Positions 4,014-14,560 of a stretch of DNA of 41,546 nt are shown one piece after another. The position numbers and the translations under genes were made by a program. Source of the DNA: a virus; the IMG/VR virus record IMGVR_UViG_3300036832_000168, positions 1 through 41,546 of that record. The stretch is one strand, 5' to 3'. The notes under the pieces are model-generated. The model saw only the letters and a list, made by a program, of their open reading frames with translations. It was not told the DNA's origin and did no database searches. Numbering within the stretch: the stretch's first letter is position 1; every line of letters starts with the position of its first letter.

Positions 4014-4841
4014 ATGTCCCGCACAGTTATCCTGGGATGTGGCCCGGCCGGACTGGCGGCGGCTGCGGCTGCCGTCAGTTCCGGCCATGAGGCCATAATC
4101 ATAAGTAATGTTGACGAGCCGTCTACGCTCTACGGGTGCCAGTATCTACACGCGCCCATTCCCGGATACGAGGACGTGGCGCAGGTCCGGGTAACCTACT
4201 CGCTAATTGGGACTCCGGAAGAATACCGCGCGAAGGTCTATGGCGGAACCTGGAAGGGAAAGGTTAGCCCGGAGGACTTCGCCGGAGATCACGACGCATG
4301 GGATATCCGCGAGACGTACGCGCGGCTCTGGACGGATCTGATCGGCTCCATGAAGGTCGGCTTGATTAAGAAGTATATCAAACACGGCCTAATCCCGTTT
4401 ACGTCTTCGCTCCATCCAGACCTTATCGTCTCGACCATTCCGGCCCAGGCGTTGTGTCAGTCGTCGGCTCACCAGTTCAAGAGCTATACGATATACGCAA
4501 ACGGAAGCACAAGCCCATTCTCCGGCACCGTGCCGCAGGAGGCGAATTCCGTTATCTGCGACGGGACGAGCGAGCACCCCTGGTACCGGGTTAGCAATGT
4601 CTTCGGCTACCGGACTACGGAATGGCCGGCCCTGCCGCCGCGAGCATCCGGAGCCGTCGCTGTCGTCAAGCCGCTCTGGACCGACTGTAACTGCCACCCG
4701 TGGGTCCTCCGCGCAGGCCGCTACGGAGCCTGGGAGAAGGCACGGCTAGTCCACGAGGTCTACCCGGCCGTAAAAGCGGCTCTAGAGCCTTCTGATGCCT
4801 ACTGGGTGCCGGGAGAGGGTGGGTCCGCATGGCGGATGTAA
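4014..4841 (+). CDS. FAD/NAD(P)-binding Rossmann-fold flavoprotein
   Basis: This 275-residue protein has an N-terminal dinucleotide-binding motif, VILGCGPAGLAAAAAA, with GxGxxG at residues 8-13. Later come a strand-loop typical of the family (DLIVSTIPAQALC, around residues 139-150) and a C-terminal GRYGAWEKARLVHEVY segment. These features occur in the UDP-galactopyranose mutase / amine-oxidase superfamily of FAD proteins. At this length it lacks much of a substrate domain, so the substrate cannot be told. Related compact flavoproteins are common in actinophages beside nucleotide-metabolism genes. It is preceded by GGAGGA and overlaps the next gene by 13 bases. A role near ThyX is possible but is only inference. 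Confidence 0.75.
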   Translation: MSRTVILGCGPAGLAAAAAAVSSGHEAIIISNVDEPSTLYGCQYLHAPIPGYEDVAQVRVTYSLIGTPEEYRAKVYGGTWKGKVSPEDFAGDHDAWDIRETYARLWTDLIGSMKVGLIKKYIKHGLIPFTSSLHPDLIVSTIPAQALCQSSAHQFKSYTIYANGSTSPFSGTVPQEANSVICDGTSEHPWYRVSNVFGYRTTEWPALPPRASGAVAVVKPLWTDCNCHPWVLRAGRYGAWEKARLVHEVYPAVKAALEPSDAYWVPGEGGSAWRM

Positions 4842-5494
4842 GTCCGTTCCGCTCCGGAGCCGGGAAGCCCGTCATCGCTCTCGACATAGACGGGACGCTG
4901 GGCGATTACCACAAGCACTTCCTGTGGTTCGCCACTCACTGGTTCGGCCGGGAATTCCCGCCTCCGGAGGAAGCCCGGTATGGAGTGCGGCTCTCCACCT
5001 TCATGGGCATCTCTCACCGCGAGTACCGGGAATGTAAGCTCGCATATCGTCAGGGAGGCCTGAAGCGCTTTATGCCGGCCTACCCATTCGCGAGCGAGCT
5101 AACCTCCGGCCTCCGCGAGGACGGAGCCCATATCTGGCTCTGTACCACGCGGCCATACCTCCGGCTAGACAACATAGACCCGGACACACGGGAATGGCTC
5201 CGTCGTAACAAAATCGAGTATGACGCGGTAATCTTCCCAGGACTCGATGAGGATGAAGGATCAAAATACCGGGACCTCATAGAGCAGGTCGGCCTGGAAC
5301 GGATTGTCGCTATCTGTGATGACCTACCGGAACAGACGGACGACGCCTATAATCGCGGTATAGAGACGGTCTATATCAGGGACCAGCCCTATAACCGGGC
5401 CAACTCCATACACCGTTACCGGATCCACGACCTTACGGAGCTTCATCGTCTCCTATCAATCGACCTCTACACGTGGAAGGAACAAAATGCCTAG
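4829..5494 (+). CDS. HAD-superfamily phosphatase, possibly 5'(3')-deoxyribonucleotidase
   Basis: This 221-residue protein has a HAD motif I, ALDIDGTLGDYHKHF, with the nucleophile/acid pair Asp19 and Asp21. A motif II threonine lies in WLCTTRP (about residue 110), and a motif IV DD pair in VAICDDLPEQTDD (about residue 168). The substrate is not given by the sequence. The position beside thyX and the length fit a deoxynucleotide phosphatase, but other small-molecule phosphatases are possible. The start overlaps the end of the flavoprotein gene, and its stop overlaps the next ATG (ATGCCTAG). Confidence 0.78.
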   Translation: MADVSPFRSGAGKPVIALDIDGTLGDYHKHFLWFATHWFGREFPPPEEARYGVRLSTFMGISHREYRECKLAYRQGGLKRFMPAYPFASELTSGLREDGAHIWLCTTRPYLRLDNIDPDTREWLRRNKIEYDAVIFPGLDEDEGSKYRDLIEQVGLERIVAICDDLPEQTDDAYNRGIETVYIRDQPYNRANSIHRYRIHDLTELHRLLSIDLYTWKEQNA

Positions 5495-8014: not shown

Positions 8015-8247
8015 TAGGCCGCTTCCTCGTTATCCGGCCGGTGCCTCCGGCTCTATTCGACGACAAAGAAGCTCTCTATGACGCTCTCCGTCCGATCTGG
8101 AATGAAGAGCTGCAGAACAAGGCCGGGATTCCGCTAGTGGGCCCGCTCCACTACAAGCGGCTCGAATTCGTCTCGCCAGAACTTGCCTCATTCGTTCCGT
8201 ATGTCCCAATCGCAATCCACGGTCCAGCGGAGACTATGGCGCCATGA
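8011..8247 (+). CDS. Hypothetical protein, 78 aa
   Basis: This gene is coupled on both sides: its ATG overlaps the stop of the membrane peptide, and its stop overlaps the PHP-domain gene by 4 bases (ATGA). The product begins with a strand (GRFLVIRPVPPALF), then a helix (DDKEALYDALRPIWNEEL), then a second strand-rich part. It could be a small alpha/beta domain. There is no recognisable family. Confidence 0.65.
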   Translation: MIGRFLVIRPVPPALFDDKEALYDALRPIWNEELQNKAGIPLVGPLHYKRLEFVSPELASFVPYVPIAIHGPAETMAP

Positions 8248-9173
8248 AATTCGTCAACCTCCACCATCATACGACGTTTAGCTTTGGCGACGGGTATGGG
8301 ACTCCACTGGAGCACGTCCTGCGAGCGGTGGAGCTTGGCTATTCGGCCATAGCCGCAACGGAGCACGGGAATGTGTCCTCGCATTTCCAGCTGGAGAAAG
8401 CCGCGCTCGCGAACGGCATCAAGCCGATCTTTGGGCTTGAGGCTTATACCGGCTCCGTGGACCCGGATACCCGGCAGCAGTTCAAGTTCCACCTCACGAT
8501 AATCGCGGAGACTCTCGATGGATACCGTAACCTCAACCGAATCGTCACCCAGTCTTACCTCGACGCTTACTACCATCCAACAGTGGGTGGAGAAAGTCTC
8601 CGAAGGAATGCAGAAGGTCTTGTCATTCTGTCAGGATGTACTGGAAGCCTACTCGCGTGCTCTCTTGTCGGCGGCAAGGGAATTCCTGAGCCGACTTCCC
8701 GCGACGGCTATGCCTGGGATGACGCCAGACTCGTCATCCAGCGCTTTGCCGCTCTATTTGGGTCCCGTTATTATCTTGAGGTCCAGCCATTCTGGGAGCT
8801 GGAGAAGTCCCAGCGTATCAATACCGCCTATGCGAAGCTCTCCAGAGAAATGGGAATCCCGATGGTCGTCACGAATGACGTCCATTATCCCAGGCCAGAG
8901 GACTCTGAAATGCAGGCCATCCTTCACGCGGTACGGCGAGGAAAGCATACCGTAGAGGAAATGCAGCGAGAGTGGAATTACTCCGTTCCCATGACGCTGC
9001 CGTCCTCCGACCGGGACCTAGGCGAGCGGCTTATGAAAACCGGCCTTACGCGAGACGAGGCGTGGCAGGCTATCTGTAATACGGCCGACATAGCGGCCGG
9101 GATAAACTTTAAGCTACCGAAAGCCGAACGGCTAAAGTACCCAATCCAGAAAGAAGACCTAGAGCCGTGGTGA
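8244..9173 (+). CDS. PHP domain of DNA polymerase III alpha (N-terminal half of a split C-family polymerase)
   Basis: The 309-residue protein matches the amino-terminal PHP domain of DnaE/PolC and nothing else of the polymerase. Landmarks are NLHHHTTFSFGDG (HxH metal motif, residues 3-5), TEHGN (canonical TDHGN with Glu for Asp), GIKPIFGLEAY, FHLTIIAE, ILSGCTGS and TNDVHYPRPEDSEMQAILHAVRRGKH, all in family order. Most metal ligands are retained, so a PHP proofreading or structural role remains possible. It ends with FKLPKAERLKYPI, exactly where DnaE passes from PHP to palm. The remainder of the polymerase is at 12281-14560. No intein motif is present at the end. Confidence 0.87.
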   Translation: MKFVNLHHHTTFSFGDGYGTPLEHVLRAVELGYSAIAATEHGNVSSHFQLEKAALANGIKPIFGLEAYTGSVDPDTRQQFKFHLTIIAETLDGYRNLNRIVTQSYLDAYYHPTVGGESLRRNAEGLVILSGCTGSLLACSLVGGKGIPEPTSRDGYAWDDARLVIQRFAALFGSRYYLEVQPFWELEKSQRINTAYAKLSREMGIPMVVTNDVHYPRPEDSEMQAILHAVRRGKHTVEEMQREWNYSVPMTLPSSDRDLGERLMKTGLTRDEAWQAICNTADIAAGINFKLPKAERLKYPIQKEDLEPW

Positions 9174-10003
9174 ATCAAGATGATAAGGACCCTATCTGCT
9201 ACCTAGGGACCCATAGACTGAAATGGCTATGGTCTGGCGATGTTGATTTCCGGCTATTTATTCACCAGGCCGGTATAACAAGGACGGCCCAAAGGGCAAT
9301 AGTTCCATGGGGTATGGACTCCGGAGGCTACTCAACCCTAAGCAGATTCGGCAAATGGGATATAACCCCAGCCCAGTATGTACGCAAGACAGCCTGGTGC
9401 GACCGGCATATTGGCAATCTCGAAATGGCCGCTCCACAGGACTGGATGTGCGAGCCGCCAGTAATCGCAAAGACCGGACTGACTCCTGGAATTCATCAGA
9501 TACGTACAACAATCAACTTCTCAGTACTGAATGAACTATGGCCGCAGCATAGCGATGAGGAAAGCCCGTATTTCCCGGTCCTACAGGCGGCACCAGGAGA
9601 TATTGACGGCTACCTTAGGCATATAGACATGTACGAGGAAGCCGGGATAAACCTATGGGATTACCATACGGTTGGCATCGGAACCGTATGCCGGATTCAG
9701 AGCAACAAGATTATCGGCTTGCTCGCCCGCGAGCTAAATCAGACCGGCCTACGATTCCACTGGTTCGGTGTAAAAACGGACGGCATCCCTCTCGTATGGC
9801 CTCGTGATAAACACCGTAAGGCATTTGGCTCTTTCGATTCCATGGCATGGAGTGCCACTGCCCGATACCGGCCTGTCCTCCTTCCGGAATGTAAGGGGAA
9901 CGGCCATATTAATTGTGCTAACTGCGTTATCTGGGCGCGGAAATGGCGCCAGGAATACATCATGGATACAATCGGTGAACTCAGGAAGGGAAATGGAAAA
10001 TGA
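9167..10003 (+). CDS. dpdA: DpdA-like 7-deazaguanine DNA transglycosylase
   Basis: DpdA is the DNA-acting relative of tRNA-guanine transglycosylase; it exchanges guanine in DNA for a 7-deazaguanine base. In this 278-residue protein the catalytic-site strand WGMDSGGYSTLSRFGKW has Asp51, and GIGTVCRIQSN lies at 170-180. A FHWFGVKTDG strand follows, then FDSMAWSATAR with Asp224 as the likely nucleophile. A Cys/His metal site follows (Cys242, His248, Cys250, Cys253). All are in the order seen in phage DpdA. The start is GTG: 9167 or 9170, the latter overlapping the previous stop as GTGA. It is followed by a precursor transporter and QueC in overlapping frames, forming a DNA-modification cassette. 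Confidence 0.88.
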   Translation: MVNQDDKDPICYLGTHRLKWLWSGDVDFRLFIHQAGITRTAQRAIVPWGMDSGGYSTLSRFGKWDITPAQYVRKTAWCDRHIGNLEMAAPQDWMCEPPVIAKTGLTPGIHQIRTTINFSVLNELWPQHSDEESPYFPVLQAAPGDIDGYLRHIDMYEEAGINLWDYHTVGIGTVCRIQSNKIIGLLARELNQTGLRFHWFGVKTDGIPLVWPRDKHRKAFGSFDSMAWSATARYRPVLLPECKGNGHINCANCVIWARKWRQEYIMDTIGELRKGNGK

Positions 10004-10524
10004 ATAACAAGACAATCGGCGGGATCTTCGCGGCTATATACGTCGCAACGATCGTTCTAGCTAACTGGCTGGTTCACCGGTTCGGGCTTATCCCAGTCGG
10101 ATTCGGGCTCATGGCTCCGGCTGGGGTCTACGCGGCTGGCTTCTCATTCCCGGCCCGTGATTTCGTCCAGAGGTCCCTAGGACGTATAGCCGGAATCGCG
10201 CTTATCCTAGTTGCGGCCGGGCTCTCGTTCGCCTTCAGCCCGACGCTAGCTATCGCTTCCGGGGTGACATTCCTTGTAAGTGAGAGCCTGGACTTTTCCT
10301 TGTATACCTGGCTCGCTAGGCGATGGTTCATTTGGGGCGTTCTAGTCTCCAGCGTTATAGCGGCCATCATAGACTCGCTGCTATTCCTCTATCTCGCGCA
10401 TATCCCGTACAACGTAGCCCTGGCCGGGCAGATAGTAGGTAAACTAGAGGTAATCCTAATCGTGGGTATGCCATTGACATTTATCCTTAAGCGGAAGATA
10501 TCCCTAACCCCAGCAGAGGCGTGA
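10000..10524 (+). CDS. yhhQ: YhhQ/VUT-family queuosine-precursor (preQ0/preQ1) transporter
   Basis: This 174-residue, very hydrophobic protein has five or six predicted membrane helices (AAIYVATIVLANWLV; FGLMAPAGVYAAGFSF; IAGIALILVAAGLSF; WGVLVSSVIAAIIDSLLFLYL; VILIVGMPLTFIL). It carries the family motif around ESLDFSLYTWLAR. YhhQ-family proteins take up 7-deazaguanine precursors. It is shorter than bacterial YhhQ (about 220 aa) but similar to phage forms. It overlaps DpdA by 4 bases and is immediately followed by QueC, so its cargo is most likely the precursor used by DpdA. Confidence 0.82.
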   Translation: MNNKTIGGIFAAIYVATIVLANWLVHRFGLIPVGFGLMAPAGVYAAGFSFPARDFVQRSLGRIAGIALILVAAGLSFAFSPTLAIASGVTFLVSESLDFSLYTWLARRWFIWGVLVSSVIAAIIDSLLFLYLAHIPYNVALAGQIVGKLEVILIVGMPLTFILKRKISLTPAEA

Positions 10525-11150
10525 TGACGACAATAGCAATTCTGTCGGGCGGAATCGACTCAACGTGCGCAGCTTCCGTCACAAGGGCTACATCCGCAGT
10601 CACATTCGACTACGGTCAGCGGCACCGTCGTGAGATAGATGCGGCACGGCGAGTAGCAGAGTATCTCAACATTAGATGGCAAGTGTTCGGGCTACCGGAC
10701 ATACTATCCAAATCAGCATTGCTAGGCGATGCTGATATCCCCCATGGCCGTTACGATGATCCATCGATGAAGATAACCGTCGTACATGGCCGTAATCTTC
10801 TATTCGTTGCGACTGCCATCGCAGCAGTAACTCGGCCGGGAGATAAGCTAGTAACTGGCGTTCATGCCGGAGACCATCCTATATACCCAGACTGTCGTCC
10901 TCGTTTCTGGGCGGCTGTCAGGCTCGCTGCGGAGGCATATAACATCAGCATCATCACTCCATTCATCAGAATGGATAAGGCCGGGGTAATCAAAGCCGGA
11001 CATGCCGCCGGAGCTCCGGTAGGCATTACATGGAGCTGCTATGAAGGAATGTCAGTTCACTGCGGCAAGTGCGGAACCTGTACTGAAAGAATCGAAGCAT
11101 TCAAGCTGGCAGGAATAAACGATCCGACTATCTATGATAAGGAAGCCTAA
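10524..11150 (+). CDS. queC: 7-cyano-7-deazaguanine (preQ0) synthase QueC
   Basis: QueC converts 7-carboxy-7-deazaguanine to preQ0 using ATP and ammonia. The 208-residue protein shows the PP-loop SGGIDST at residues 8-14, GRNLLF at 89-94, and HAGDHPIYPDCRPRFW at 114-129. The zinc site near the C-terminus has Cys172, Cys180, Cys183 and Cys186 (SCYEGMSVHCGKCGTC). The length is close to the family's 220-230. I take ATG 10524 (TGATG overlap with the transporter stop) over the GTG at 10521. The other precursor enzymes (FolE, QueD, QueE) are not in this window; they may be outside it or supplied by the host. Confidence 0.93.
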   Translation: MTTIAILSGGIDSTCAASVTRATSAVTFDYGQRHRREIDAARRVAEYLNIRWQVFGLPDILSKSALLGDADIPHGRYDDPSMKITVVHGRNLLFVATAIAAVTRPGDKLVTGVHAGDHPIYPDCRPRFWAAVRLAAEAYNISIITPFIRMDKAGVIKAGHAAGAPVGITWSCYEGMSVHCGKCGTCTERIEAFKLAGINDPTIYDKEA

Positions 11151-11356
11151 TGCCAAGAAGTGAGAATTCAATCGTTCCGCTACCGGGAAACGTTACGATC
11201 ATGACGGCGAGCCCGGACGGCCGGGCTTATACTCACGTCCAGATTGACCGTGGAATGCTAGAGGATGAGGAGCTATGCCCCACGGCCGTCAGGGAAGTCC
11301 TCCGGCGACTCGATGAAGCACTAGCCGAACTAACCAGGGGAGGACGTACGCCATGA
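11150..11356 (+). CDS. Hypothetical protein, 68 aa
   Basis: Its ATG shares a base with the queC TAA (TAATG) and its stop overlaps the next ATG. The product has a strand-rich N-terminal half (SIVPLPGNVTIMTASPDGRAYTHVQI) and a C-terminal helix (PTAVREVLRRLDEALAELTRGG). There is no known domain. Its position between queC and a methyltransferase leaves open a link to the modification cassette, but nothing in the sequence shows it. Confidence 0.65.
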   Translation: MPRSENSIVPLPGNVTIMTASPDGRAYTHVQIDRGMLEDEELCPTAVREVLRRLDEALAELTRGGRTP

Positions 11357-11883
11357 CCGCAGAATCGTGGAACATGCCGATCGACATTATGGGAATGCTC
11401 CGTCTCGGAGCCGACCGGCCGCGTATCCCGTCCTGGGAGTACGAGTCCAGGCCGCCTGGCGGCCTCGTGCTTAACCTTGGGGCCGGAGCAAAGCTAATCC
11501 AGCACTCCGTGGCCCTGGACCTCCCGGAGTGGGATGCGGATTGTGACCCAATCCCGTACGGAGACGAGACGGTAACAGCCATCTACGCGCTCCATTTCCT
11601 AGAGCACGTAAATAACCCCATCGCGCTACTCCGCGAGTGCCAGCGGGTCCTTAAGCCCAGATGTCATCTCAATGTCGTGGTCCCTCACTGGAATACCCAG
11701 CTCGCGCATTCCGACCTCGACCACAAGTCTTCCTGGGACGAGGAAACATGGAGCCGGATATTCCAGAATGAATACTACGACAAGGACCATAAGGACTGGA
11801 GCTTCCGTATCGGGACCAACGTCCTAATGGGAATCGACGCGCGGAACCTCCTCATCATTACCCAGCTCATCAAGGAACGGTAA
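11353..11883 (+). CDS. Class I SAM-dependent methyltransferase (Methyltransf_11-like)
   Basis: This 176-residue protein has a glycine-rich SAM motif, LNLGAGAKLIQ (about residues 37-47), an acidic motif II (VALDLPEWDAD), and the family signature ALHFLEHVNNPIALLRECQRVLKPRCHLNVVVPHW. This places it in the Methyltransf_11 type of small-molecule or glycan-related enzymes rather than in the DNA adenine/cytosine methylases; no DPPY or PCQ motif is visible. The C-terminal part (SDLDHKSSWDEETW) is polar. It is coupled to both neighbours. Since it follows queC, tailoring of a modified base is possible but unproven. Confidence 0.8.
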   Translation: MTAESWNMPIDIMGMLRLGADRPRIPSWEYESRPPGGLVLNLGAGAKLIQHSVALDLPEWDADCDPIPYGDETVTAIYALHFLEHVNNPIALLRECQRVLKPRCHLNVVVPHWNTQLAHSDLDHKSSWDEETWSRIFQNEYYDKDHKDWSFRIGTNVLMGIDARNLLIITQLIKER

Positions 11884-12281
11884 TGGAACCCATTCCAGAA
11901 CATCTCCAGCATGAGCTGGAAGTCCTCCAGGACCTCCGGGCCGTAGTCCGCGAGGCACACGAGGCCATCCAGGACCTCCGTACGGCTATCCGCGAAGCCC
12001 GCGAGCTGCGGGAGCGCTTCCTAGCAGCTCCGGAGCTAGCGGAACAGCTAGGCGAGCGGGTGAAGGAGGGACTGGACGAGTACGGCAAGGTTCTCCAGGA
12101 GGCTATCAAGGTAGCCGAACAGGCCATGTACAATCGTTTCGATGTCCTGACGGCTATCTGCCTAGGCGAGGACCCGGAATCCATTAGGACAGGTGTCACA
12201 TCAATGCCGCAGCTACTCCGCGAATTCATCGCGACTCGTGGTGACCTCCCTTACCGGCTCGTCAAGATAAAGGACAAGTAA
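11883..12281 (+). CDS. Coiled-coil hypothetical protein, 132 aa
   Basis: The product is almost entirely helical with heptad-like patterns (HELEVLQDLRAVVREAHEAIQDLRTAIREARELRERFL, then LAEQLGERVKEGLDEYGKVLQEAIKVAEQAM). A more globular basic C-terminal part (MPQLLREFIATRGDLPYRLVKIKDK) follows. It probably oligomerises. Its stop overlaps the start of the polymerase gene by one base (TAATG), so it may be made in proportion to the polymerase, possibly as a partner or clamp-like accessory. This is only inference from position. Confidence 0.68.
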   Translation: MEPIPEHLQHELEVLQDLRAVVREAHEAIQDLRTAIREARELRERFLAAPELAEQLGERVKEGLDEYGKVLQEAIKVAEQAMYNRFDVLTAICLGEDPESIRTGVTSMPQLLREFIATRGDLPYRLVKIKDK

Positions 12282-14560
12282 TGCTTGATACGCTTTCTGC
12301 CGAAGATTTGTTGTGGGATTGGGCCCGTAAAGGATGGCGCTATCGCGGCCTAGGACGTATGCCGCAAGCCGAGCAGGACTGGCACGGTGCGCGGGTTAAG
12401 CGTGAGATGGATATGATCCTTGGGAAAGGACTAGCCGACTTCTTTCTGTTTACCTCCGATACGATCCGATGGGCGAAAGACAACGGTGTCGTTATCGGTC
12501 CCGGACGCGGAAGCACCGCCGCGAGCGACGTTGCATACATCACCCGTATTACGGAAGTCAATCCGTTCCGGTACCCGGATATGATCTTTGAGCGCTTCCT
12601 TGACGTTACCCGGCACGACCCACCCGACATCGACGTTGACTGCTCTGACGAGCAGCGCTATATGGTCCGTGACTATCTCGCATATAAGTACGGCCCGGAG
12701 TGCGTAGGCCACATTGGTAACTTTATCCGGTACAAGGCCAAGAATTCGCTCAAGGATGTCGGCCGGGTCTATAACATCCCGCTCCATGCTATAGAACAAA
12801 TCGGCAACGTCGCGATTGACCGGAGTGGTGGTGACTCGCGAGCGGACGCGACCCTGACTGACACCTTTGAGATGTTCCAGTCGGCCCGCGACATCCTGGA
12901 GCAGTATCCAGATATTGCGAAGGCCGCACGGCTTGAGGGTAATTACCGTGGGCTATCTATCCACGCCTGCGGCCTAATGGTGGCTAGCTCGCCGCTAACC
13001 GACGTCTGTGCCGTCTATACCGGGAAGGACGGCGAGCGTGTCGTTAGCCTGGATAAAGTCGATGCGGAGTACATCGATGCGCTTAAACTCGACTTCCTGG
13101 GACTCTCGACTCTTGGCATGATTACCCGGTGCCTCGCTATGGCCGGGCTGACGCTAGCCGACCTCTACGCCATCCCAGACACAGATGAGTCTGCGATCAA
13201 TGTATTCCGGACGAATGACCTCATGGGAGTCTTCCAGTTCGGAGCGCGAGCTACCCGGCTCGTAAACCGTGACGTCCATCCGGATAACTTCTGGCTCATC
13301 GTTTGTATCAACGCTCTCTCGCGGCCGGGTCCTCTATTCTCCGGGCAGACCGCTGAGTTTATCGACGTACGGCACGGCCGGGAGCTCGCGACCTCGCTCC
13401 ATCCGATTGTCGATGATATCACGGCCCATACCTACGGGCAGATGATCTTCCAGGAACATATCCTCCGGGCTCTCCGCGAGATAGGCAATCTCCAGTGGAC
13501 TAACGTTCACCATATCCGGCGCATTATCGCTAAGAAGTCCGGACAGGCGGCATTCCAGCAGAACTTTGAAGCGTTCGCTCAGGGAGCACACGACCTACAC
13601 GGAATCGATCATGAGCTTGCCGACCAGATCTGGCACCGTCTCGTTACGGCTGGGACGTATGCGTTCAACGTCGCTCACGCCGTCTCCTATTCGCTGCTCG
13701 CATTCTGGACCGCCTGGCTCAAGGTCCACTACCCGCTGGAGTTTTACGCGGCCTCACTTGTGAAAGCCGAAGGCGACAAAGAGCTGACGTTTAGGCTCCA
13801 GCGTGACGCACTCGCGCACGGCATCGATATCAAGCCGCCGCAGATAGGGATTAGCGGGAAGACCTGGACTCCGCACTTTGTCGCTAACGACCGGCCGGAG
13901 CTTCGCCGGCTGGAGCTGATAGCCGGCTGGGGAGCCGTTCCGGGTATCGGTCCTAAGAAGGCTCCTGCGCTCGCGGAGGCAGCCGCTACGGCCTCCGCGT
14001 GGGCCGACCTCGCGGAAGTACCAGGCATCGGGCTTGAGACCGTAGAGACGATGCAAGCCTTCTCAAGAGCGAAGGACCCGTTTGGGCTCTACCGGACGGA
14101 GCGCAAGCTAAAGGCCGTACGCCTCTGGATCCGGAAGCAGAAGGTCGTCCCGATGCCCACTCACAACGGCGACGCACTGGCCATAATGAAAGTCCCTGAT
14201 AACCGGAACAGCGGAGGCCGATGGATCGTCGGACCTCGCGTGGTTTACTTCGGGGTAGTAAGGCGTGTCGAGTATAAAGACGTTATCGAGGACGAGCGGA
14301 GCCGTACCGGCGAGGAAATAGAAGATATAGTCAAGCGCCTTAAGCGTCCCGACCTCGCGAAGCGTGCCACGCTTCATATGTACGATGAAGGTGAGGAGGA
14401 AGTTTATGCGAGGATCAACCGCTGGAGATTCCCGGAGCTAGTAAGCACGCTAGAGCGTATCCGGATAAACCACGACGTTGTGGTAATCCTGGGGCACCGT
14501 ATCGCCGGGTTTGGTACTCCAATCCGTACCGACAAAATCTGGGTCATCGACCCTGATTGA
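12281..14560 (+). CDS. dnaE: DNA polymerase III alpha, palm/fingers/HhH/OB part (C-terminal half of a split C-family polymerase)
   Basis: This 759-residue replicative polymerase lacks the PHP domain. The first 70 residues match the palm-linker of DnaE (REMDMILGKGLADFFLFTSDTIRWAK). GPGRGSTAAS follows (73-82), then PPDIDVDC with catalytic Asp116 and Asp118, and the third Asp271 in ALKLDFLGLSTL. SIHACGLMVA and the fingers region are recognisable. Two PGIG helix-hairpin-helix motifs lie at about 550-590, and an OB-like domain starts at FGVVRRVEY (about 660). No 3'-5' exonuclease domain is present. The PHP half is encoded 3.1 kb upstream, with the DpdA/YhhQ/QueC cassette and three further genes between. 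Confidence 0.92.
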   Translation: MLDTLSAEDLLWDWARKGWRYRGLGRMPQAEQDWHGARVKREMDMILGKGLADFFLFTSDTIRWAKDNGVVIGPGRGSTAASDVAYITRITEVNPFRYPDMIFERFLDVTRHDPPDIDVDCSDEQRYMVRDYLAYKYGPECVGHIGNFIRYKAKNSLKDVGRVYNIPLHAIEQIGNVAIDRSGGDSRADATLTDTFEMFQSARDILEQYPDIAKAARLEGNYRGLSIHACGLMVASSPLTDVCAVYTGKDGERVVSLDKVDAEYIDALKLDFLGLSTLGMITRCLAMAGLTLADLYAIPDTDESAINVFRTNDLMGVFQFGARATRLVNRDVHPDNFWLIVCINALSRPGPLFSGQTAEFIDVRHGRELATSLHPIVDDITAHTYGQMIFQEHILRALREIGNLQWTNVHHIRRIIAKKSGQAAFQQNFEAFAQGAHDLHGIDHELADQIWHRLVTAGTYAFNVAHAVSYSLLAFWTAWLKVHYPLEFYAASLVKAEGDKELTFRLQRDALAHGIDIKPPQIGISGKTWTPHFVANDRPELRRLELIAGWGAVPGIGPKKAPALAEAAATASAWADLAEVPGIGLETVETMQAFSRAKDPFGLYRTERKLKAVRLWIRKQKVVPMPTHNGDALAIMKVPDNRNSGGRWIVGPRVVYFGVVRRVEYKDVIEDERSRTGEEIEDIVKRLKRPDLAKRATLHMYDEGEEEVYARINRWRFPELVSTLERIRINHDVVVILGHRIAGFGTPIRTDKIWVIDPD

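What the first reader, a model, noticed from the sequence alone, without database searches (positions are those of the whole stretch)
9167..11150. DpdA-YhhQ-QueC: predicted 7-deazaguanine modification of phage DNA
DpdA motifs (DSGGYS, FDSMAWSATAR, CysX7CysX2Cys), a YhhQ-family transporter and a complete QueC are encoded in overlapping order. DpdA enzymes are known to place 7-deazaguanines in phage and bacterial DNA and so block host restriction. With no tailoring enzyme such as an ArcS-like amidinotransferase visible, preQ0 in DNA is the simplest expectation.
Basis: partly seen in the sequence, partly recalled or inferred. Interest (0 to 1): 0.75.

Follow-up and report, generated by a model that had tools for sequence, protein, structure and literature searches.

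The report
Phage cassette for 7-deazaguanine DNA
An uncultured phage carries, between the two halves of its split DNA polymerase gene, three coupled genes that probably take up a guanine-like precursor, finish it, and swap it into the phage's DNA; the parts are known, but this combination is rare and would allow a test of a DpdA subgroup that has never been shown to work.

Summary
dpdA (9167-10003), a COG1738/Vut_1-like transporter gene (10000-10524) and queC (10521-11150) are real, intact and overlapping. This DpdA is not the Rosebush type shown to modify DNA. It belongs to the 'singleton' mycobacteriophage subgroup, whose one tested member (phage Orion) had no detectable 7-deazaguanine; neither Orion nor its host makes preQ0. 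In 160 further loci of this subgroup (80 viral, 80 bacterial), 30 have the transporter gene near dpdA and none has queC within 6 kb. Two short unrelated contigs carry the same three functions with other DpdA types. FolE, QueD and QueE are absent from the window, but sister contigs extend about 4 and 9 kb past its ends, so their absence from the phage is unproven. Best reading: precursor uptake (or host CDG), QueC to preQ0, DpdA exchange into DNA, expressed with the polymerase. preQ0 is the likeliest product; whether this DpdA subgroup acts on DNA at all is the open question this locus makes testable.

The parts
8244..9173 (+). PHP half of a split DnaE (DNA polymerase III alpha)
   Evidence: PF02811 E=7e-31; phrog_405 DNA polymerase profile positions 42-330
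9167..10003 (+). dpdA, Orion/singleton subgroup, TGT fold; start may be 9170
   Evidence: PF23859 E=3.7e-59; phmmer 1.7e-59 to OSmaximus, same species as Orion; AF2 pLDDT 90.7, top 5 PDB matches TGT
10000..10524 (+). Vut_1/COG1738-like membrane transporter (six-helix model)
   Evidence: PF02592 E=8.7e-6, below cut-off; phrog_4899 6e-31; TIGR00697 2.7e-7 below cut-off; AF2 pLDDT 92.7, weak ECF S-component-like fold
10521..11150 (+). queC, canonical signature (SGGIDS, YGQRHRRE, VHGRN, YPDC, CX7CX2CX2C)
   Evidence: PF06508 E=5.2e-46; best PDB sequence matches are QueC 2pg3 and 3bl5; alignment; signature from PMC13329287
11150..11356 (+). small ORF of unknown function in the same coupled run
   Evidence: no family match
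11353..11883 (+). SAM methyltransferase; resident of the DnaE region, probably not part of the dpd cassette
   Evidence: PF08241 3.4e-8; phrog_6636; homologue in Butterscotch beside DnaE without VUT or QueC; also in or next to the DnaE gap in L235 and L180
11883..12281 (+). 132-aa ORF, coiled-coil-like, unknown function
   Evidence: only weak matches
12281..14560 (+). palm/fingers half of the split DnaE
   Evidence: PF07733 1.9e-61, PF17657 4.3e-31; phrog_11165 1e-240; 83% identical to L180, 68% to L181

Best explanation
dpdA-transporter-queC is a compact 7-deazaguanine DNA-modification cassette of the uptake type, carried in the gap of a split DnaE gene by a phage of actinobacterial type. The transporter brings a 7-deazaguanine precursor into the infected cell. 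QueC converts CDG (from the host, or imported) to preQ0 via ADG. DpdA, with a TGT fold and the D51/D224 pair, exchanges guanine for preQ0 in newly made phage DNA, protecting it from host restriction. Overlapping start and stop codons tie the cassette to both polymerase halves, so modification would be made together with replication. Shown here: gene presence, family, catalytic signatures, coupling, insertion site, and recurrent dpdA-transporter pairing. Inferred: precursor identity, that this DpdA subgroup acts on DNA, the product dPreQ0, and the protective role.
For: Families and intact motifs; TGT fold. The QueC residues shown to be essential in E. coli (Y35, R99, Y131, Y189; PMC13329287) all have counterparts. 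The transporter gene is near dpdA, in most cases directly adjacent, in 17/80 viral and 13/80 bacterial loci, with at least 10 changes of state on the DpdA tree, though only 2 are forced by starred branches; related transporter genes also sit beside two other TGT-like families in StevieRay, Aoka, ReqiPine5, Pam5 and RHph_N3_2. Across 20 records with a transporter and a TGT/DpdA-like gene, hits to QueD, radical SAM (QueE) and FolE number zero, and QueC is found only in the window, L117 and L119. L117 and L119 carry dpdA-queC-transporter with other DpdA types; L119's transporter passes the TIGR00697 cut-off (93 against 51 bits). Rosebush, which encodes DpdA and the preQ0 enzymes, carries about 28% of its G as dPreQ0 (PMC6884629).
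Against: Orion, with the same DpdA subgroup, had no modification (PMC6884629). Window DpdA has no phmmer match (E<=10) to Rosebush-type DpdA. Transporter scores are below curated cut-offs. With no QueD or QueE in the window, QueC's substrate source is unknown; if preQ0 itself were imported QueC would be superfluous. QueC has VHGRN where VPxRN is canonical and X7 where X8 is canonical in the Zn motif (most other aligned phage QueC proteins share X7, and L100/L101 have VQGRN).
Confidence: 0.6

Rival explanations
1. The phage makes the base from GTP: FolE, QueD and QueE lie in the part of the genome missing from this fragment, and the transporter is an extra.
For: The window is a fragment: sister G003 extends about 9 kb beyond its left end and G001 about 4 kb beyond its right end. 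Most of the 80 QueC loci have folE, queD and queE nearby, and L108 and L110 have the transporter as well.
Against: In loci with the full pathway queC usually sits beside queD; here it sits beside the transporter and a small ORF. None of 20 transporter-plus-TGT/DpdA records holds QueD, QueE or FolE. The extra stretches of G001 and G003 hold none either, but those phages also lack dpdA.
Confidence: 0.22
2. Orion-type DpdA does not modify DNA with preQ0: it acts on another target (for instance tRNA) or another base, and QueC supplies that.
For: Orion DNA was unmodified; Hutinet et al. note that this subset may have functionally diverged (PMC6884629). No QueC within 6 kb in 160 loci of the subgroup. 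Its best structural matches are tRNA-TGTs.
Against: The Orion result is explained by the lack of any preQ0 source in phage and host. The window links this subgroup to QueC in overlapping genes, and many relatives pair it with a queuosine-precursor-type transporter gene. The published 9g DpdA did not replace tRNA TGT in E. coli (PMC6884629), though it is another subgroup.
Confidence: 0.2
3. The product in DNA is dADG (or a methylated form made by the neighbouring methyltransferase) rather than dPreQ0.
For: QueC works through ADG; Salmonella phage 7-11, a DpdA-only phage, carried a trace of dADG (PMC6884629). A methyltransferase gene lies downstream (11353-11883).
Against: The methyltransferase homologue sits beside DnaE in Butterscotch, which has no VUT or QueC hit, and in the DnaE gap of L235, so it belongs to the polymerase region. 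Rosebush DNA carries dPreQ0 with only a trace of dADG (PMC6884629).
Confidence: 0.12
4. The genes are passengers of no present function, a chance insertion in a tolerant gap.
For: The cassette is absent from syntenic sisters, so it is a lineage-specific insertion.
Against: All three frames are intact with catalytic residues kept, start and stop codons overlap, and the same three functions occur in unrelated phages.
Confidence: 0.06

Closest known systems
dPreQ0 pathway of Mycobacterium phage Rosebush (Rosebushvirus; Arbiter L269 is the same species)
   Same: DpdA plus QueC encoded together without an amidotransferase; product dPreQ0 shown for Rosebush (PMC6884629)
   Different: Arbiter has dpdA-queC-queD-queE-folE and no transporter hit; its DpdA is another subgroup with no phmmer match to the window's
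Singleton DpdA of Mycobacterium phage Orion (Pegunavirus; OSmaximus L019 is the same species)
   Same: Same DpdA subgroup, 42% identical, same invariant residues
   Different: OSmaximus has no hit to QueC or to the transporter; Orion DNA was unmodified (PMC6884629)
DpdA-transporter pairs, e.g. Sinorhizobium phage phiLM21 and the uncultured phages L049, L059, L094
   Same: Transporter gene directly beside a DpdA of the same family, or nearby (L059, L094)
   Different: No QueC in the record
Short contigs L117 and L119 (dpdA-queC-transporter, then terminase genes)
   Same: The same three functions in adjacent genes without queD, queE or folE on the contig
   Different: Other DpdA subfamilies, other gene order, not in DnaE; contigs of only 5.4 and 9.7 kb
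Split DnaE of Mycobacterium phage Leopard
   Same: PHP and palm halves in separate genes, split at the same domain boundary
   Different: Only one small ORF in the gap, no dpd genes

Membership tests
DpdA (PF23859) | Match above the curated family cut-off | tested here: met
   200.5 bits against a cut-off of 27
DpdA (PF23859) | TGT fold | tested here: met
   AF2 model pLDDT 90.7; five best PDB matches all TGT, probability 1.00, TMq 0.54-0.59
DpdA (PF23859) | Two catalytic Asp, equivalents of TGT D102 (SGG motif) and D280 | tested here: met
   D51 in DSGG and D224 in FDSMAWS invariant in 45/45; the assignment to TGT residues rests on motif resemblance (own knowledge of TGT), not on a residue-level superposition
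DpdA (PF23859) | Zn-binding site of Cys/His | tested here: inconclusive
   C242, H247, C250, C253 present; C242 kept in 25/45 and H247 in 32/45 relatives; metal not testable
DpdA of the experimentally confirmed (Rosebush) subgroup | Sequence membership of that subgroup | tested here: not met
   No phmmer match at E<=10 to Arbiter/Rosebush or Sour DpdA; 1.7e-59 to the Orion-type protein
DpdA (PF23859) | Base exchange in DNA | not testable with these tools
   Needs LC-MS; Orion, same subgroup, was negative without a base source (PMC6884629)
Canonical QueC (PF06508 cluster 1) | SGGxDS, YxQxHxxE, VPxRN, YPDC, C(x)8CxxCxxC and the Tyr in the Zn region (PMC13329287) | tested here: met
   SGGIDS, YGQRHRRE, YPDC, CY present; VHGRN keeps the essential Arg; Zn motif is CX7CX2CX2C as in most other phage QueC proteins aligned
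Canonical QueC (PF06508 cluster 1) | NCBIfam TIGR00364 equivalog cut-off | tested here: inconclusive
   142.5 bits against 150.3, E=1.2e-41; QatC scores only 16 bits
COG1738/YhhQ queuosine precursor transporter | Match above curated cut-off | tested here: not met
   PF02592 26.6 against 27.2; TIGR00697 30.6 against 50.95; filed as a Vut_1-like relative, not as YhhQ
COG1738/YhhQ queuosine precursor transporter | Polytopic membrane fold with genomic link to 7-deazaguanine genes | tested here: met
   Six-helix model; near dpdA in 30/160 loci
COG1738/YhhQ queuosine precursor transporter | Transports preQ0 or preQ1 | not testable with these tools
   Substrate is hard to predict from sequence (PMC11130926)
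preQ0 de novo pathway (FolE-QueD-QueE-QueC) | FolE, QueD and QueE present | tested here: inconclusive
   None in the window, but the genome is incomplete
dG+ (archaeosine) or dPreQ1 phage pathway | ArcS, Gat-QueC or QueF/QueF-L present | tested here: inconclusive
   None among the window proteins scanned against Pfam; QueC is 209 aa without a Gat domain; a few small ORFs were not scanned and the genome is incomplete

The most novel reading that the evidence does not exclude
The phage transporter imports CDG (or another QueC substrate) rather than preQ0, so that transporter plus QueC replaces FolE-QueD-QueE and lets an Orion-type DpdA modify phage DNA in hosts with no queuosine pathway: a scavenging route to modified phage DNA that was not found described.
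Probability: 0.15. Interest if true: 0.7.

Novelty: new variant of a known kind. Interest (0 to 1): 0.45.

Why it matters
Nearly 400 phage records carry DpdA of this type, and its function is unknown: the one tested phage had unmodified DNA, and the authors asked whether the subgroup had diverged. A phage in which this DpdA overlaps with a queuosine-precursor-type transporter gene and a canonical QueC says that the subgroup probably does use 7-deazaguanines, and turns the question into a plasmid and LC-MS experiment. The recurring pairing of DpdA with a transporter (30 of 160 loci), in records that lack QueD, QueE and FolE, suggests that many phages scavenge the modified base instead of making it, which the papers found here do not test. 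Hutinet et al. noted phage YhhQ genes but no correlation with any phage group.

Tried and rejected
Single-protein scan with DpdA in viral contigs found nothing; the transporter alignment had no searchable stretch and the single transporter found nothing, so transporter neighbours were taken from DpdA and QueC loci. The downstream methyltransferase as a tailoring enzyme: rejected as unlikely, because it accompanies DnaE in phages without the other genes. phmmer of the transporter against PDB gave only a glycerol-3-phosphate acyltransferase at E=0.044. L035/G027 seemed a second case of this DpdA with QueC, but that record carries a separate Rosebush-type dpdA-queC-queD-queE-folE cluster several kb away, so it proves nothing. 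The idea that the window might be a complete 41.5-kb genome was dropped after comparing with G001 and G003. Orion and Rosebush records themselves were not held; members of the same species were used. Papers on DpdL/DpdM/DpdN-type tailoring enzymes were not found in the library, so those enzymes were not sought.

Full report
OBSERVATION. The window is a 41,546-base virus record classed as linear. Its left third is an early-gene block on the + strand; structural genes are on the - strand. Pfam puts the first and third well above cut-off as DpdA (3.7e-59) and QueC (5.2e-46); the second is a Vut_1 relative just under the cut-off, with TIGR00697 'queuosine precursor transporter' at 2.7e-7, also under cut-off. 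These scores exclude chance for DpdA and QueC; for the transporter the case rests on the family as a whole (9/9 members match Vut_1), on its six-helix model and on its genomic company. Foldseek gives it only weak similarity to ECF S-components (RibU, probability 1.00 but E=0.03, TM about 0.5).

ENZYME INTEGRITY. DpdA: the AF2 model is confident (pLDDT 90.7) and its five best PDB matches are tRNA-guanine transglycosylases. D51 (DSGG), D92, C175, H198, D224 (FDSMAWS) and C253 are invariant in 45 sequences; C250 is kept in 41, C242 in 25 and H247 in 32. QueC: the signature defined experimentally for canonical QueC (PMC13329287) is met, with two small departures, VHGRN for VPxRN and CX7C for CX8C; the shorter Zn spacing is shared by most other phage QueC proteins aligned.

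WHICH DpdA. By phmmer the window protein matches the OSmaximus DpdA at 1.7e-59 and does not match the Rosebush-type DpdA at E<=10. OSmaximus and Orion are the same species, Pegunavirus Pg1. Hutinet et al. (PMC6884629) describe the mycobacterial singletons as a separate subgroup whose function needs study, and report no 7-deazaguanine in Orion DNA, expected since neither Orion nor M. smegmatis encodes the preQ0 pathway.

COMPANY OF THIS SUBGROUP. In 80 viral loci, 17 have a Vut_1-type gene near dpdA, in most cases directly adjacent; none has queC, queD or queE within 6 kb, and one (L035) has folE. In 80 bacterial loci, most of them from Actinomycetota, 13 have the transporter gene adjacent and none has queC, queD, queE or folE. 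On the viral DpdA tree the transporter label needs at least 10 changes, fewer than any of 500 shuffles, though only 2 are forced by well-supported branches. Whole-record searches for QueC in over 40 records of this subgroup found it in the window and in one 127-kb record, G027, which has its own Rosebush-type cluster. The mycobacterial branch that includes OSmaximus has no transporter gene next to dpdA, and in four whole mycobacteriophage records of the subgroup and in Streptomyces phage Gilgamesh none was found anywhere (that search had no positive control). Related transporter genes also neighbour two other TGT-like families in cultured phages. The window's combination is therefore unique among the loci seen, but two short contigs, L117 and L119, have dpdA-queC-transporter with other DpdA types, upstream of terminase genes, where Sour and Arbiter have dpdA-queC-queD-queE-folE.

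MISSING STEPS. FolE, QueD and QueE (radical SAM) are not in the window by family search or by tblastn with phage homologues. The window is incomplete: whole-contig synteny with G001 and G003 shows about 4 kb beyond the right end and about 9 kb beyond the left. So either the host, the medium through the transporter, or an unseen part of the genome supplies the QueC substrate. None of the 20 searched records with the transporter and a TGT/DpdA-like gene has QueD, QueE or FolE, which favours supply from outside the phage. If the transporter carried preQ0 alone, QueC would be needless unless the host supplied CDG; hence the minority reading that it carries CDG.

PLACE IN THE GENOME. The flanking genes are the PHP domain and the palm/fingers of DnaE, two ORFs whose profile matches abut (positions 42-330 and 336-895 of phrog_405). 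About half of 80 relatives have the same split, with gaps up to about 1.2 kb, and most of the rest have one fused gene; Leopard is a cultured split example. No relative has dpdA, transporter or queC at this place. In the syntenic sisters G001, G002 and G003 the same junction is 183, 181 and 10 bp, so the 3.1-kb stretch here is a lineage-specific insertion into a permissive gap (inference from presence and absence). A methyltransferase gene is also found in or beside this gap in L235 and L180, and beside DnaE in Butterscotch; it is best seen as a polymerase-region gene. Overlapping or abutting stops and starts run from PHP to the DnaE palm gene, so modification enzymes and polymerase are probably made from one message (inference).

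MECHANISM. Uptake of precursor or use of host CDG; QueC to preQ0; DpdA exchange of G for preQ0 in replicated phage DNA; protection from restriction. The chemistry and protection are established for other phages (PMC6884629); for this subgroup they are inferred. Confidence 0.6.

NOVELTY. All parts are known kinds; the uptake-plus-QueC form, its tie to the Orion-type DpdA, and the place inside a split DnaE were not found in the papers searched. Filed as a new variant of a known kind.

Noticed in passing
8244-9173 and 12281-14560: DnaE is split into a PHP gene and a palm/fingers gene; the same split occurs in about half of 80 related uncultured phages and in Mycobacterium phage Leopard, with 0-1.2 kb of small ORFs in the gap. 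Possibly a two-subunit replicase with a separate PHP protein.
   Followed up: partly
11353-11883: SAM methyltransferase (phrog_6636) that recurs in or beside the DnaE gap in related phages (L180, L235) and beside DnaE in Butterscotch; target unknown.
   Followed up: partly
L117:839-2936 and L119:1100-3426: Two unrelated short phage contigs with dpdA-queC-transporter upstream of terminase genes, where Sour and Arbiter have dpdA-queC-queD-queE-folE: the transporter seems to stand in for the three early enzymes.
   Followed up: partly
L323:2620-3849: Orion-type DpdA with an adjacent transporter gene in a bog metagenome bin labelled Melainabacteria, so the pair may extend beyond Actinomycetota.
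   Followed up: no
4014-4841 and 4829-5494: Oxidoreductase-like and nucleotidase-like genes that keep company with DnaE and ThyX in Mycobacterium phages Butterscotch and Leopard, Nocardia phage P3.1 and the sister contigs; function unknown.
   Followed up: no
G027:37971-47714 (L270): One phage record with two different DpdA subgroups, one in a full preQ0 cluster and one Orion-type several kb away.
   Followed up: partly
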